From: an uncultured Flavobacteriaceae bacterium
GTDB lineage: Bacteria; Bacteroidota; Bacteroidia; Flavobacteriales; Flavobacteriaceae
DNA: 60,393 nucleotides
Assembly (NCBI GenBank): GCA_947500445.1
Contig: CANMSB010000031.1
Span: 1 to 60,393, forward strand
Direction of reading: 5' to 3'
Position 1 is the first letter of the stretch, and each line of letters begins with the position of its first letter. A program made the translations under genes and the position numbers. The notes beneath the pieces are model-generated. The model had not been told where the DNA came from and searched no databases. It saw only the letters and a list, made by a program, of their open reading frames with translations. Shown in pieces: positions 52,246-56,021 of the stretch.

Positions 52246-52326
52246 GCTCGAGTGGCGGAACTGGTAGACGCGCTGGATTCAAAATCCAGTTCCTTTGGAG
52301 TGTGGGTTCGATTCCCACCTCGAGTA
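52246..52326 (+). tRNA. tRNA-Leu (anticodon CAA)
   Basis: 81 nt. Acceptor arm GCTCGAG pairs with CTCGAGT (G1-U72 wobble), D arm GGCGGAACTGGTAGACGC, anticodon stem CTGGA/TCCAG with loop TTCAAAA giving anticodon CAA (reads UUG), a long variable arm (TTCCTTTGGAGT) typical of type II tRNAs, and T arm GTGGGTTCGATTCCCAC. Discriminator A. CCA is not encoded. Followed by a terminator. Confidence 0.95.
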
Positions 52327-52330
52327 CTTT

Positions 52331-52604: not shown

Positions 52605-53810
52605 ATGAAGGAAACACTGGAACCCCAACTTGTACGGATAGCGGAAATCATTAAGGACGATTATTCCAAATCGGAGCACATCGGTCTGCTTTCGGGCCGT
52701 TCTGGCCTGGCGCTGTTCCAATTTTATTGCGCAAAGTATTTTGATGACGATTCCTATGCCGAGGTCGGTGTTGAAATACTGTCGTCCATTACCGAAAGTA
52801 TCGACAACGGATATTCCTATGCTACCTATTGTAATGGTATAGCAGGGTTTTGTTGGACAGTGCAGCATTTGGTCGAGCATGATTTTATCGATTTGGACGT
52901 AAAGGAGCTGTTGGACCCTTTCGATTCGTTCTTGTTTTTCCAACAAGAGTTTGAACTGAACAATGGAAACTACGATTTTCTACATGGGGCGATGGGGTAT
53001 GCGTTTTACTTTCTAAGCCGATACCTCGGCAGTTCCGATAATGAAAGTCGCGAGAAGTATGAAACCTTTTTGGAAAGCTTTGTTCTCCGCATGGAGGAAA
53101 TGGCGATACCGGACGGCCCGGATTTCAAATGGGAATCGGTATTGGACGAGGAAAAAGGAGATAAGGTCTTTAATTTGGGACTGTCGCATGGTATGAGCAG
53201 TATTGTGTACTTTTTTTGTCGCTTGTACGATGCAAGTATTTTACGGGACAAACTAACACCGTTGATCAACGGGGCCATAGGGTATATATTGCGTTTTGAG
53301 AACAAAGGAGAAACGGGATTTTCCTTGTTTCCAAATTGGATCGTGCCGGGGAGTCCGCCGGAGCATCACAGCCGATTGGCTTGGTGCTATGGTGATATCG
53401 GAATTGCAATAGCCTTGGGTACGGTCGGTAGAACGTTTGGAAAACCGGATTTAGAAACGAAATCCGAAGAAATTCTACTACATTCCGCCAAACGGGTACG
53501 CGTGGAGGAAACTATTGTTGTAGATGCCGGTTTTTGCCACGGTTCTTACGGAAATGCCCATATGTTCGAAAGTTTCGCAGCCCGTTTTAAAAACGATCGC
53601 TTTAAGGAAATTGCGGAGTTTTGGTTAACGGACGGCATCGATAAACATACCGGAGATGCTCTAGAGCCGTACCGGCAGTATAATCATATGCGCGATAGTT
53701 GGGCATTCGATATTGATGTGCTCGAAGGAGTTGCAGGTATCGGACTCTGCATGATCGATTACCTGTCCGAGGAAAACAATACGTGGGATGAATGTCTGAT
53801 GCTACGCTAA
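52605..53810 (+). CDS. LanC-like lanthipeptide cyclase
   Basis: 401 residues from the ATG at 52605 (an in-frame TTG one codon earlier is ignored). Alpha/alpha-barrel repeats typical of LanC: GLLSGRSGLALFQFY, YCNGIAGFCWTVQHL, FLHGAMGYAFYFLSR, GLSHGMSSIVYFF, WCYGDIGIAIALG, FCHGSYGNAHMF, LEGVAGIGLCMI. Zinc ligands are Cys261 (WCYGD), Cys311 and His312 (FCHGS); His195 of LSHGMSS is the usual general base. In class I systems LanC joins Cys thiols to dehydro-residues made by LanB. A GG-leader precursor is encoded convergently 164 bp away, but no LanB is in the window. Confidence 0.9.
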   Translation: MKETLEPQLVRIAEIIKDDYSKSEHIGLLSGRSGLALFQFYCAKYFDDDSYAEVGVEILSSITESIDNGYSYATYCNGIAGFCWTVQHLVEHDFIDLDVKELLDPFDSFLFFQQEFELNNGNYDFLHGAMGYAFYFLSRYLGSSDNESREKYETFLESFVLRMEEMAIPDGPDFKWESVLDEEKGDKVFNLGLSHGMSSIVYFFCRLYDASILRDKLTPLINGAIGYILRFENKGETGFSLFPNWIVPGSPPEHHSRLAWCYGDIGIAIALGTVGRTFGKPDLETKSEEILLHSAKRVRVEETIVVDAGFCHGSYGNAHMFESFAARFKNDRFKEIAEFWLTDGIDKHTGDALEPYRQYNHMRDSWAFDIDVLEGVAGIGLCMIDYLSEENNTWDECLMLR

Positions 53811-53914
53811 GCTTTTTTTCGGGATTTGATTGGTATGGAAGCGTTTAGGGGGATTAAGGAGCTTCCAATTTGTTTAGGATTGTTGTAATCAAAAATAAAA
53901 TAGCGATACCAACA

Positions 53915-53946
53915 GAAAAAGGCCATGGATGTCCATAGCCTTTTTC
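53915..53946. terminator. Bidirectional terminator between LanC-like and precursor genes
   Basis: AAAAAGGCCATGGA pairs with TCCATAGCCTTTTT, one mismatch, flanked by A and T runs on both sides. It lies between converging genes and suits both. Confidence 0.8.
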
Positions 53947-53974
53947 AATTGAATTCATCTTTAAAAGATGCCGT

Positions 53975-54154
53975 TCAATAGCAGCAACCGGCATTTCCGA
54001 TCCTACTACCACAACTCAATGAAGCTGTTCCACCGCCATTGCATCCGCAAGCCGTAGGGTAACTGCCTCCCAATATTTTTTGTTGTGCGGCGCTACTTAA
54101 TTCGCTTACCGTCTTTTTCTTCAAACTCAAACCTACTTTTTTCTTTTTTTTCAT
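53975..54154 (-). CDS. lanA: Class I lanthipeptide-type precursor peptide
   Basis: 59 residues from the ATG at 54154 (a longer in-frame start at 54184 adds ten residues). The leader MKKKKKVGLSLKKKTVSEL with the motif VSELSSAAQQKILGG ends in a double glycine at 29-30, the pattern of Bacteroidota class I lanthipeptide leaders (LNK-type Leu/Ser-Leu, then (I/L)xGG). The core (31-59) is short and rich in Gly, Ser/Thr and Cys: Ser/Thr at 31, 34, 43, 45, 47, 50 and Cys at 36, 38, 48, 57, 58, closing with GCCY. Its anti-parallel partner is the LanC-like cyclase. No LanB, LanT or LanP is seen nearby. Confidence 0.82.
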   Translation of the reverse strand: MKKKKKVGLSLKKKTVSELSSAAQQKILGGSYPTACGCNGGGTASLSCGSRIGNAGCCY

Positions 54155-54296
54155 GACTTCAAGATTTAAAAGGTTAACATTCATTTTACCTCTTGAAATT
54201 ACGAATTACATACGCGAATAAAGTAAAGTAAATCTTACTTTTTTATTAAATTCTTACAGATTATGTTAAGTTGATGTGAAAATCTAAGCAATATGT

Positions 54297-54440
54297 TTTA
54301 AACCCGCTTTATGCATTAGAAAATCTATTACAGCTTCCAGCTACTTCAAAATATGGTGCTGCGGTACATTCATAAAATGTCATATTTTATCGCAGCTAAA
54401 AGCTTCATTACGAAGTTCTAATGCATAATCCGGGTTAAAA
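54297..54440. repeat. Large imperfect inverted repeat upstream of the precursor gene
   Basis: TTTTAAACCCGCTTTATGC (54297) pairs with the reverse complement of GCATAATCCGGGTTAAAA (54423-54440), 20 of about 24 positions. An inner pair GCTGCG (54358) / CGCAGC (54391) adds a second stem. The ~144-nt element has no ORF. It may be a palindromic mobile remnant or a structured leader of the lanA transcript. Confidence 0.6.
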
Positions 54441-54451
54441 GAGAACCTCTG

Positions 54452-55141
54452 CTAGGTACCCACGATCAGCATATGAAATAGCAGTGCTTGAAGCAGCAGA
54501 TCGGTAAGGGTGTCTAGTTGCTGTGCTTCGTCAGTAGTTTCAGGAGAAAATTGCTCCTTAAAGAAATGCATGGCCGAACCGATGGTTATTGGCCGTTCAA
54601 AATGATATAACAGAAAATTTTGATATTCACTTAGGGGTATCTCCAAAACGTTGCTCTGTAAGATCGAATCATAACTCCCCGTTTTTATAAGGGCAAAATA
54701 ATAGTCGCCTTCCCCTGATTCTAAAATAGCTTGAAAATGTACTGCGGCGTTTCCCTTTGGGTCGATATCCCAATTCCTGTCGGATTCGTACGTTTTTATA
54801 TTGGGGTTGACCACAAATGTTTGGTCCATTAGTGTTCTGATCGGTCGGCTCAGCCATTGTTCCCTTTTTTGAAGAAGTGTGGTTTCAAGAGCGAACAGTG
54901 CCGAAACTTGCTGTTGGTCTCCCTTAAGGATATCTTTTTGCTTTTCGATGGCGTAGATTTCCAAAAGTGCCTTTCTTTGGTTTTCGACCGGGACAAGCTG
55001 TTCCAACGCCGAGGTGTGGAGGCCGTCTACGGAACGTGATGGATTTTGCGCCCGCAGTATCGGAATTGCCTTTTCCGGCTCCAATCCCAAGAAGGACAGT
55101 AGCTGTATCGTTCTTCTATATGTAATGGCCGTGTCAGGCAT
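54452..55141 (-). CDS. Unknown protein in the lanthipeptide locus
   Basis: 229 residues, starting MPDTAITYRRTIQLLSFLGL. Mostly helical, acidic, with no signal peptide, membrane helix or Cys motif. A middle block (NPNIKTYESDRNWDIDPKGNAAVHF, EGDYYFALIKTGSYDSIL) and an end block (YHFERPITIGSAMHFFKEQF, LLLQALLFHMLIV) are the most conserved-looking parts. I do not recognise the family. Its ATG overlaps the stop of the DUF6734-like gene by 8 bp, so they are translationally coupled. It may be a scaffold or leader-recognition protein for the precursor; this is inference from position only. Confidence 0.7.
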   Translation of the reverse strand: MPDTAITYRRTIQLLSFLGLEPEKAIPILRAQNPSRSVDGLHTSALEQLVPVENQRKALLEIYAIEKQKDILKGDQQQVSALFALETTLLQKREQWLSRPIRTLMDQTFVVNPNIKTYESDRNWDIDPKGNAAVHFQAILESGEGDYYFALIKTGSYDSILQSNVLEIPLSEYQNFLLYHFERPITIGSAMHFFKEQFSPETTDEAQQLDTLTDLLLQALLFHMLIVGT

Positions 55142-56021
55142 TTGTGTTATTTATAAAACGGATGACGTTTTCGTAGTATTCCGGGTACTCCGTACGCAAT
55201 TGCAACTCCAATTCCCTACAGCGATCAAACCTTGTTTTTGCGCTCCCAAATAGATGCACATATTTACGTGTACCGTACTTCCTCATAAAGTCGGTCAGTT
55301 GCTGGAGTTGTGGCGTACCTTCATCAATATAGTGCGCGACCTCAATGCCTTTTGCCCTGGCCATAACACTGAACAATAATTGCTCGTAAATGAGGGCATA
55401 ACTAGAGCCGACCAAAGAAGGGGTTATTTTGGATCTGTTGCTGTCGATAAAGGAAAATGCACTATCGGCGTATTCTTTGAAAAAGGCGGTGTTCCTTCCC
55501 CCGATAATACCCGCGTTGGTGGCCCTTATCCGGCCTTGAAGGCTAAGGTCGGCGGTAATTTCGCCCGGTATGCCGATGCCATTATTTTTTAAATGCCCGA
55601 GCGCAAAGTCATAGTGTCCCTCTTCCCCATCTACATGCTGCCCTACAAGTTGTGCCTTTTCCAAATGAGCATCAAAGCGTTCCCAAATGTATACGTCGCC
55701 ATCGACATGTATAAAAGGATCATTTTGTATGGAATAGGTGTAGAGCTTACCGATTGCCCACAGTTTTTTGGGATAATGGTTCAGCTGATCTAGTACTACT
55801 TTTACTTCGGTATAGGGAAGTTGTAGTGCATCGATGAGTATCGCTTTTCCCTTTTTATCGGTCACCAGTTCAATGGCACCATATACCTTTTTAAAGGTCA
55901 GGCAGCTTAGCGCCCAGCTCATATAATGGTATTTCCGTTGACGCCAACCCGCTAGTGATTGTCCTACCTCTTCTTGGGAAAGGGCCAGCGGTTTGGACCA
56001 AAAACTGTGTACTATTTTAAT
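55134..56021 (-). CDS. DUF6734-like glycosyltransferase-fold protein, probable ATT start
   Basis: The ATG at 55922 gives 262 residues (MSWALSCLTFKKVYGAIELV) but the frame runs open upstream and encodes 33 further residues, KIVHSFWSKPLALS to QRKYHYMSW, that fit the usual N-terminus of DUF6734 proteins seen in Bacteroidota RiPP loci (a MKIVxSFWSKP beginning). The position of the expected start ATG is ATT at 56021-56019, with a stop just upstream, so translation must begin at ATT, or the gene lost its start by an ATG-to-ATT change. Later motifs: DKKGKAILIDALQLPY, HVDGDVYIWERFD (DxD-like), IIGGRNTAFFKEYADSA, YVHLFGSAKTR. Function in RiPP biosynthesis is unproven; a nucleotide-sugar transferase is a structural guess. 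Confidence 0.72.
   Translation of the reverse strand: MKIVHSFWSKPLALSQEEVGQSLAGWRQRKYHYMSWALSCLTFKKVYGAIELVTDKKGKAILIDALQLPYTEVKVVLDQLNHYPKKLWAIGKLYTYSIQNDPFIHVDGDVYIWERFDAHLEKAQLVGQHVDGEEGHYDFALGHLKNNGIGIPGEITADLSLQGRIRATNAGIIGGRNTAFFKEYADSAFSFIDSNRSKITPSLVGSSYALIYEQLLFSVMARAKGIEVAHYIDEGTPQLQQLTDFMRKYGTRKYVHLFGSAKTRFDRCRELELQLRTEYPEYYENVIRFINNTNA

What the first reader, a model, noticed from the sequence alone, without database searches (positions are those of the whole stretch)
52605..56021. Incomplete class I lanthipeptide-type locus: LanC-like cyclase, GG-leader precursor, DUF6734 and an unknown protein, no LanB
A complete LanC-like enzyme (Cys261, Cys311, His312) faces, across a shared terminator, a 59-residue precursor with an ILGG leader end and a Cys/Ser/Thr-rich 29-residue core. 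Two further genes (54452 and 55134) overlap each other on the precursor strand. In class I lanthipeptide systems LanB must dehydrate Ser/Thr first, and LanT/LanP or a C39 peptidase must cut after GG and export. None is within 20 kb on either side. Either the missing parts act in trans, or the locus works by another chemistry, for example with the unknown 229-residue protein or the DUF6734-like protein taking part. The gene order is a minimal set that, as far as I know, is not described as a complete system.
Basis: partly seen in the sequence, partly recalled or inferred. Interest (0 to 1): 0.85.

Follow-up and report, generated by a model that had tools for sequence, protein, structure and literature searches.

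The report
Scattered lanthipeptide locus, probable glycosyltransferase pair
A Bacteroidota genome appears to make a ring-forming peptide from scattered genes: this locus holds the peptide, the ring-closing enzyme and a probable sugar-attaching enzyme pair, while the dehydrating enzyme and exporter it seems to need sit elsewhere in the same genome.

Summary
In detail: an intact LanC, a 59-aa GG-leader precursor, DUF6734 and a 229-aa gene, with no LanB or C39 peptidase on this contig. A LanB-free chemistry is not needed: the same genome encodes one split LanB beside a C39 exporter on contig C15, a locus with neither LanC nor precursor. In four same-genus genomes LanC, LanB and precursors are linked, and this LanC groups with theirs. 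The window is best read as a satellite of a class I lanthipeptide pathway whose dehydratase and exporter act in trans. The gene set recurs: with LanB in five loci, without LanB nearby in two more. DUF6734 models as a GT-A glycosyltransferase; the 229-aa partner may end in a leader-binding (RRE-like) domain. Precursors within 1.5 kb of DUF6734 have a leader spacing of 20 residues (14 of 14, against 3 of 24) and a Tyr in the first eight core residues (14 of 14, against 4 of 24). I propose leader-guided glycosylation, perhaps of that Tyr, which the papers I searched do not describe for class I. Gene content, fold, linkage and motifs are computed; the chemistry is inferred.

The parts
52605..53810 (+). 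LanC lanthionine cyclase, Zn ligands C261, C311, H312 kept
53915..53946 (.). hairpin between the convergent LanC and LanA genes, A-run before and T-run after: likely bidirectional terminator
   Evidence: z -5.0; not listed by the simple scan
53975..54154 (-). LanA precursor, 59 aa
54065..54154 (-). leader, LSLKKKTVSEL (LxLxKx5L) to ILGG, spacing 20
   Evidence: motif in PMC7268733
53978..54064 (-). core, 29 aa, 5 Cys, Ser/Thr, Tyr at core position 2
54452..55141 (-). 229-aa partner of DUF6734, possible C-terminal RRE/PqqD-like domain
55134..56021 (-). DUF6734, predicted GT-A glycosyltransferase; ATT at 56021 where most relatives checked have ATG, GTG or TTG; first ATG 55922

Best explanation
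The locus is a satellite of a dispersed class I lanthipeptide pathway. LanA (53975-54154) is made here. The split LanB on contig C15 dehydrates Ser/Thr after binding the LxLxKx5L leader. The local LanC (C31), perhaps with the LanC on C40, closes the lanthionine rings. The C39-ABC/HlyD exporter on C15 cuts after GG and exports. DUF6734 and the 229-aa partner add a further modification: the partner binds the longer leader through an RRE-like domain and presents the core to DUF6734, a GT-A glycosyltransferase of retaining type, which puts a sugar on the core, most likely on the Tyr near its start. Shown by computation: gene identities, LanB and exporter elsewhere in the genome, common ancestry with linked clusters, DUF6734 fold, gene linkage, leader and Tyr correlations. 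Inferred: action in trans, leader binding by the partner, glycosylation and its site.
For: One split LanB and a C39 exporter on C15, where there is no LanC and no leader-type precursor. In the family sample 9 of 11 LanC genomes have LanB, against 18 of 199 overall. G133 repeats the layout: LanC with a LanA-like ORF about 283 kb from a LanB/exporter locus without LanC (its leader is just under the curated cut-off, 21.7 of 22 bits). Four same-genus genomes (G002, G003, G007, G008) have LanC, LanB-N and LanB-C adjacent, with LanA-like ORFs in all four and the C39/HlyD exporter in three (the G007 contig ends nearby). The LanC tree joins the C31 and C40 LanCs with these four (96/94), and the LanB tree joins the C15 LanB with the same genomes. 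DUF6734: LanC in the flanks of 14 of 79 loci, LanB of 12 of 79; five loci carry LanA, DUF6734, partner, LanC and LanB (L125, L126, L127, L129, L133; L126 shows LanB-N only, near its contig end). The window's DUF6734 falls in a clade of 9 (support 1.00). The 50 PDB matches shown for its model are all glycosyltransferases, E from 4e-6. Partner domain in 30 of 79 loci, in some fused to DUF6734. Leader spacing 20: 14 of 14 LanAs within 1.5 kb of DUF6734, 3 of 24 others (Fisher 7e-8). Tyr in the first 8 core residues: 14 of 14 against 4 of 24 (3e-7; thinned for relatives 11 of 11 against 3 of 18, 1e-5).
Against: No expression, product or interaction data. The Tyr and spacing tests were framed after seeing sequences, with cut-offs of mine; the rows are related, and the 14 come from 12 loci. 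DUF6734 also occurs beside GG-leader peptides without LanB and, in several (L178, L184, L189, L195), without Tyr in the first eight core residues; a peptide beside it on an Emticicia plasmid also lacks one. The partner's RRE call rests on a low-confidence model (mean pLDDT 59) and Foldseek E 0.013 or worse; Pfam PqqD was E 0.14 on one relative and not listed for three others; a profile search of PDB sequences gave 0 hits. DUF6734 here may start at an ATT codon. The C39 transporter on C2 could also be the exporter. Four other same-genus genomes (G001, G005, G006, G009) have no LanB match, so the pathway is not a genus trait.
Confidence: 0.66

Rival explanations
1. Ordinary dispersed class I lanthipeptide: LanB in trans, LanC and LanA here, while DUF6734 and the 229-aa gene are neighbours with an unrelated job such as surface polysaccharide.
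For: No LanB match in the flanks of 67 of 79 DUF6734 loci (some flanks are cut by contig ends); SusC-like matches in the flanks of 24 of 79.
Against: The pair sits within 1.5 kb of class I type LanAs in 14 cases, with a leader spacing and Tyr that other LanAs mostly lack; the same pair is in five complete or nearly complete LanB clusters; the partner is fused to DUF6734 or to a LanC-like domain in some loci.
Confidence: 0.2
2. The locus works without LanB: DUF6734 and/or the partner activates Ser/Thr (for example by glycosylation followed by elimination) and LanC adds Cys.
For: Several loci have LanA with the pair and no LanB within the flank (window, L123, L124, L128, L130, L131).
Against: LanB exists in the same genome and in G002, source of L124; five relatives keep LanB in the same cluster as the pair; I recall no precedent for sugar-activated dehydration.
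Confidence: 0.07
3. Decayed remnant: the cluster broke up, DUF6734 lost its start codon and the LanA/LanC unit is no longer used.
For: ATT in place of ATG/GTG/TTG at the DUF6734 start; LanC and precursors are missing from the C15 locus compared with same-genus relatives.
Against: All four ORFs are open and the LanC ligands, LanA motif and DxD are kept; two LanC+LanA units exist in this genome (C31, C40); a similar split is seen in G133.
Confidence: 0.07

Closest known systems
Class I lanthipeptides of Bacteroidetes with LxLxKx5L/GG leaders and C39 peptidase (Walker et al. 2020, PMC7268733, passages seen), split LanB as in pinensin
   Same: Leader motif, GG end, LanC, split LanB, C39 exporter
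   Different: LanB and exporter are on another contig; that survey called a cluster class I only with LanB within seven genes of LanC and discarded unclassified ones, so units like this were left out; DUF6734 not named in the passages seen
Unlinked LanB/LanC genes in Bacteroidetes (Marsh et al. 2010, PMC3091789, passages seen: Spirosoma linguale 4 LanB and 5 LanC with one pair together; Microscilla marina)
   Same: LanC and LanB not side by side
   Different: Noted in passing there; no precursor-LanC satellites or tailoring pair in the passages seen
Prochlorosins (class II; as described in PMC7268733, passages)
   Same: Precursors far from the modifying enzyme
   Different: One LanM does both steps (recalled); here class I, with LanC beside LanA and LanB shared
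Glycosylated lanthipeptides cacaoidin (class V, O-glycosylated Tyr; PMC8068269, passages) and NAI-112 (class III, Trp; same paper and PMC12328550, passages)
   Same: Sugar on a lanthipeptide; Tyr as acceptor in cacaoidin
   Different: GT-2 and GT-4 enzymes in the Streptomyces cacaoidin cluster; here a class I system with DUF6734 and a partner gene
Glycogenin and LgtC (GT8), GTA/GTB (GT6), UGGT (GT24); family numbers recalled
   Same: Closest solved folds to the DUF6734 model; glycogenin glucosylates a Tyr (recalled)
   Different: TM-scores by query length 0.39-0.52 and sequence identity 10-14% in the rows shown

Membership tests
Class I lanthipeptide system | LanC cyclase with Zn ligands Cys, Cys-His | tested here: met
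Class I lanthipeptide system | LanB dehydratase (glutamylation and elimination domains) | tested here: met
   met in the genome, split, on C15; not met on this contig
Class I lanthipeptide system | LanA leader of a curated class I type, core with Cys and Ser/Thr | tested here: met
Class I lanthipeptide system | GG-cutting C39 exporter (for GG-leader members) | tested here: met
   in trans, C15 and C2; none on this contig
Class I lanthipeptide system | lanthionine in the product | not testable with these tools
   needs mass spectrometry
Class I cluster in cis (survey definition of PMC7268733) | LanB within seven genes of LanC | tested here: not met
   the contig ends about 4.4 kb past DUF6734
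GT-A glycosyltransferase (for DUF6734) | GT-A fold | tested here: met
   model pLDDT 81.9, pTM 0.85; 283 PDB matches at E <= 0.001, the 50 shown all glycosyltransferases
GT-A glycosyltransferase (for DUF6734) | DxD metal/nucleotide-sugar motif | tested here: met
   HxDxD in 8 of 8 rows of A2, window included; the 79 later loci were found with this motif as search pattern, so they do not count
GT-A glycosyltransferase (for DUF6734) | sugar transfer | not testable with these tools
   needs assay
RiPP recognition element (for the partner) | PqqD-like winged-helix domain | tested here: inconclusive
Glycosylated lanthipeptide (cacaoidin, NAI-112) | sugar on the mature peptide | not testable with these tools
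   no product data

The most novel reading that the evidence does not exclude
DUF6734 with its partner is a new leader-guided peptide glycosyltransferase system of Bacteroidota. In class I lanthipeptides it recognises a leader about three residues longer than usual and glycosylates a Tyr near the start of the core, giving the first glycosylated class I lanthipeptides that I know of; the set also travels as LanA-LanC-DUF6734-partner satellites served by one shared LanB/exporter locus.
Probability: 0.42. Interest if true: 0.82.

Novelty: new variant of a known kind. Interest (0 to 1): 0.7.

Why it matters
It explains 'orphan' LanC/precursor loci that cluster-based mining discards, gives a function and an acceptor-site hypothesis to a Pfam family named in no paper of the library searched (DUF6734: 0 papers), and offers a testable enzyme pair for attaching sugars to lanthipeptides. 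The glycosylated lanthipeptides met in the passages seen are cacaoidin and NAI-112.

Tried and rejected
LanB-free chemistry as the main reading: rejected after finding LanB in the same genome and in five relatives with the same gene set.

Overturned when L124, the same contig with more left flank, showed LanC and LanA about 7-9 kb from DUF6734, and.

NCBIfam L1a/L1b as names for the two leader spacings: dropped, since short-spacing leaders also score on NF038153 over part of the model, and L128 (spacing 20) scores better on NF038158.

229-aa protein searched alone: 2 of 60 relatives, own genome included; 1 of 395 in the order sample, the own genome, with a two-row profile; genome contigs none. 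Only linkage to DUF6734 revealed the family.

DUF6734 against LanB presence in 28 hand-picked genomes: 8 of 22 LanB-positive, 0 of 6 LanB-negative; too few and too selected to use.

Insertion at the tRNA-Leu (52246-52327): not followed; GC of the genes is like the surroundings, with a dip to 0.35 between 53800 and 54700.

Rows set aside before the tests: identical peptides were counted once, and 7 of the 45 LanA-like ORFs were far from LanC, LanB and DUF6734 in the stretch they were read from. One of the 7 is the G002 satellite LanA (L017 764-967): spacing 20, Tyr at core position 3. In L124, which reaches the LanC, the same peptide lies about 0.7 kb from LanC and 7 kb from DUF6734; counted as 'other' it would make the comparison 4 of 25 (spacing) and 5 of 25 (Tyr). 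Another of the 7, L092 11539-11709, has spacing 20 and no early Tyr. Cut-offs (1.5 kb, 6 kb, at least 2 Cys) were mine.
Full report
What is there. The window is the whole contig C31 of a 5.18-Mb, 177-contig genome, 99.82% complete. Four genes stand together: LanC (52605-53810, +), and on the other strand LanA (53975-54154), a 229-aa gene (54452-55141) and DUF6734 (55134-56021). LanC and LanA converge on a strong hairpin at 53915-53946 (z -5.0). LanC keeps the Zn ligands. LanA passes the curated class I leader model (26.5 bits, cut-off 22) and fits LxLxKx5L with a GG end, the motif Walker et al. report for a number of Bacteroidetes class I precursors (PMC7268733, passages).

Where the missing parts are. 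The genome has three LanC-like genes (C31, C40, C2), one LanB split in two genes on C15 and C39 peptidases on C15 and C2. The C15 locus reads: SusC/SusD, C39-ABC, HlyD, LanB-C, LanB-N, ribosomal protein S12 (LanB and C39 are Pfam hits, the other names here and in the scripts are my reading of the translations). It has no LanC and no leader-type precursor (gaps examined; genome-wide leader hits over the cut-off only on C31 and C40). Both LanB halves match solved class I dehydratases (9g04, NisB, 5ehk). C40 carries a second LanC with a second precursor of the same leader type. So dehydratase and exporter are at one place and LanC with LanA at two others.

Why I think they work together. In 199 genomes of the family sample, 18 have LanB, 11 LanC, 9 both (hypergeometric 2e-9); 10 of 12 genomes with a leader hit at E <= 0.01 have LanB. 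Of the 19 LanC matches, 8 lie within 10 kb of a LanB and 11 do not; of these 11, two are in genomes without LanB (G110, G153) and some (G110, G210 C10) are a distant LanC type. G133 has a layout like this genome's on one 2.8-Mb contig: exporter plus LanB without LanC, and LanC with a LanA-like ORF about 283 kb away. Of nine other same-genus genomes, five have LanB (G002, G003, G004, G007, G008) and four have no match. G002, G003, G007 and G008 keep LanC, LanB-N and LanB-C side by side, with LanA-like ORFs in all four and the C39/HlyD exporter in three; the G007 piece ends at its contig edge just beyond LanB-C. In G002 the SusC neighbour is shared too. G004 has LanB, LanC and precursor together but its LanC and LanB group elsewhere. 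In the LanC tree the C31 and C40 LanCs fall with those of G002, G003, G007 and G008 (96/94), and the C15 LanB falls with the LanBs of the same genomes, G133 outside them. The trees have open forks and long branches.

DUF6734 and its partner. The AlphaFold model of DUF6734 (pLDDT 81.9, pTM 0.85) matches GT-A glycosyltransferases: UGGT, GTA/GTB, LgtC, glycogenin (E from 4e-6). HxDxD is kept in 8 of 8 aligned rows. A scan of the 84,980-species collection with this motif gave 158 relatives, of which the best 80 (79 distinct loci) were returned. LanC lies in the flanks (10 kb or less) of 14 of 79 and LanB of 12 of 79 (BLAST E <= 1e-5). By my arithmetic, one LanB per 4-Mb genome would give about 0.4 of 79 by chance. 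Five loci carry LanA, DUF6734, partner, LanC and LanB: Flagellimonas meridianipacifica (L125), F. oceanensis (L126, LanB-N only, contig ends), Joostella atrarenae (L127), Maribacter flavus (L129), an Allomuricauda MAG (L133). Like the window, an Ulvibacterium MAG (L128) and G002 (L124, set spread over 11 kb) have LanA, LanC, DUF6734 and partner with no LanB in the flanks; G002 has LanB on another contig. A Kordia locus (L123) has LanA, DUF6734 and partner only. These eight and the window form one DUF6734 clade (support 1.00, FastTree). An Emticicia plasmid, found separately, has DUF6734 about 3.5 kb from a gene annotated lantibiotic dehydratase; the other plasmid hit, Hymenobacter, shows none in the stretch. 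More widely, GG-type ORFs with three or more Cys occur within 3 kb of DUF6734 in 27 of 79 loci, against 9 of 79 at 4.5-7.5 kb (a loose pattern, some hits look spurious).

The partner domain was found in 30 of 79 loci by iterated profile search (E < 1e-3; some matches are fragmentary). It stands alone, is fused to the end of DUF6734 (for example L184, L189, L195), or is fused to a LanC-like domain (L139, L146, L147; Pfam-checked for L146 only). Its model is weak (pLDDT 59) but the better C-terminal part is strands followed by three helices, and among its weak Foldseek matches (E 0.013 to about 1.6) are TglHI, TigE, PqqD, MadB, TbiB1 and a lasso B1 protein, several of which hold leader-binding RRE domains (that knowledge is recalled). 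Unrelated proteins are in the same list. This is a lead, not proof.

Signatures in the precursors. Of 45 distinct LanA-like ORFs in the loci fetched, 14 (from 12 loci, the window included) lie within 1.5 kb of DUF6734, 24 near LanC/LanB but not DUF6734, and 7 neither. From the first Leu of the motif to GG there are 20 residues in 14 of 14 against 3 of 24 (17 residues in 17, 18 in 4). Tyr occurs in the first eight core residues in 14 of 14 against 4 of 24; it is the only one of 20 amino acids below p 0.05. Thinning close relatives leaves 11 of 11 against 3 of 18. Spacing-20 leaders without DUF6734 nearby lack the early Tyr (0 of 3, L097 and L119; 0 of 4 in L092), while the G002 satellite LanA, 7 kb from DUF6734, has both marks. 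So the Tyr seems to go with DUF6734 rather than with the leader form. The window's core has Tyr at position 2. Against: non-lanthipeptide DUF6734 loci often lack it, and I framed the test after looking.

Mechanism. LanB in trans dehydrates, LanC here cyclises, the exporter in trans cuts after GG, and DUF6734 with its partner glycosylates the core, perhaps at Tyr. The first steps are supported by genome content, synteny and trees; the last by fold, linkage and motif only.

What is known. Split LanB, GG leaders and C39 proteases in Bacteroidetes are known (PMC7268733, passages). Unlinked LanB and LanC were mentioned for Spirosoma and Microscilla (PMC3091789, passages). Walker et al. called a cluster class I only with LanB within seven genes of LanC and discarded the unclassified. 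Work on Pedobacter lusitanus lanthipeptides is cited in papers seen; the one I tried was not held, so dispersed loci may be described there. No paper in the library holds 'DUF6734'; a search for lanthipeptide, RiPP recognition element, glycosyltransferase and Flavobacteriaceae together gave 0. Most subscription papers are not in that library. Glycosylated lanthipeptides met in passages are cacaoidin and NAI-112.

Verdict. Real, partly ordinary (a dispersed class I lanthipeptide), with a new and testable part (the DUF6734 pair).

Noticed in passing
L010 9101-13572 (G000:C40): Second LanC + LanA unit in the same genome, with a LytTR-like and a histidine-kinase-like gene between them; leader spacing 17, and the genome's only DUF6734 match is the window's.
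   Followed up: partly
L011 8221-9438 (G000:C2); L085 8884-11885 (G208:C76): Third LanC lies beside an S9-peptidase-like gene, with S8-like peptidases, HlyD, C39-ABC and GG-type peptides; another genome also has LanC next to an S9-like gene.
   Followed up: no
G210: 25 leader hits at E <= 0.01 spread over many contigs and one LanB: looks like a class I counterpart of dispersed prochlorosin precursors.
   Followed up: no
G226: L091, L092: LanB and 14 leader hits but no LanC-like match in the genome.
   Followed up: no
window 56019-56021: The DUF6734 codon aligned to the relatives' start is ATT; either a rare start or a shortened protein from 55922.
   Followed up: partly
L113, L114, L115, L116, L117, L192, L194, L197: DUF6734 beside Cys-rich GG-type peptides (the one in L117 has GA), mostly with a VKOR/C39-like membrane protein (Pfam-checked in L115) and no LanB match in these stretches: apparently a second peptide system using DUF6734.
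   Followed up: partly
L146 10899-12668; L139; L147: LanC-like domain fused to the partner domain, next to DUF6734.
   Followed up: partly
L160 7586-10004; L157 11718-12959: DUF6625 gene (Pfam, L160 7586-8812) and similar-looking genes near DUF6734 in LanB clusters; possible further glycosyltransferases (guess).
   Followed up: no
window 52246-52327: tRNA-Leu (caa) about 280 bp before LanC; possible insertion site.
   Followed up: no
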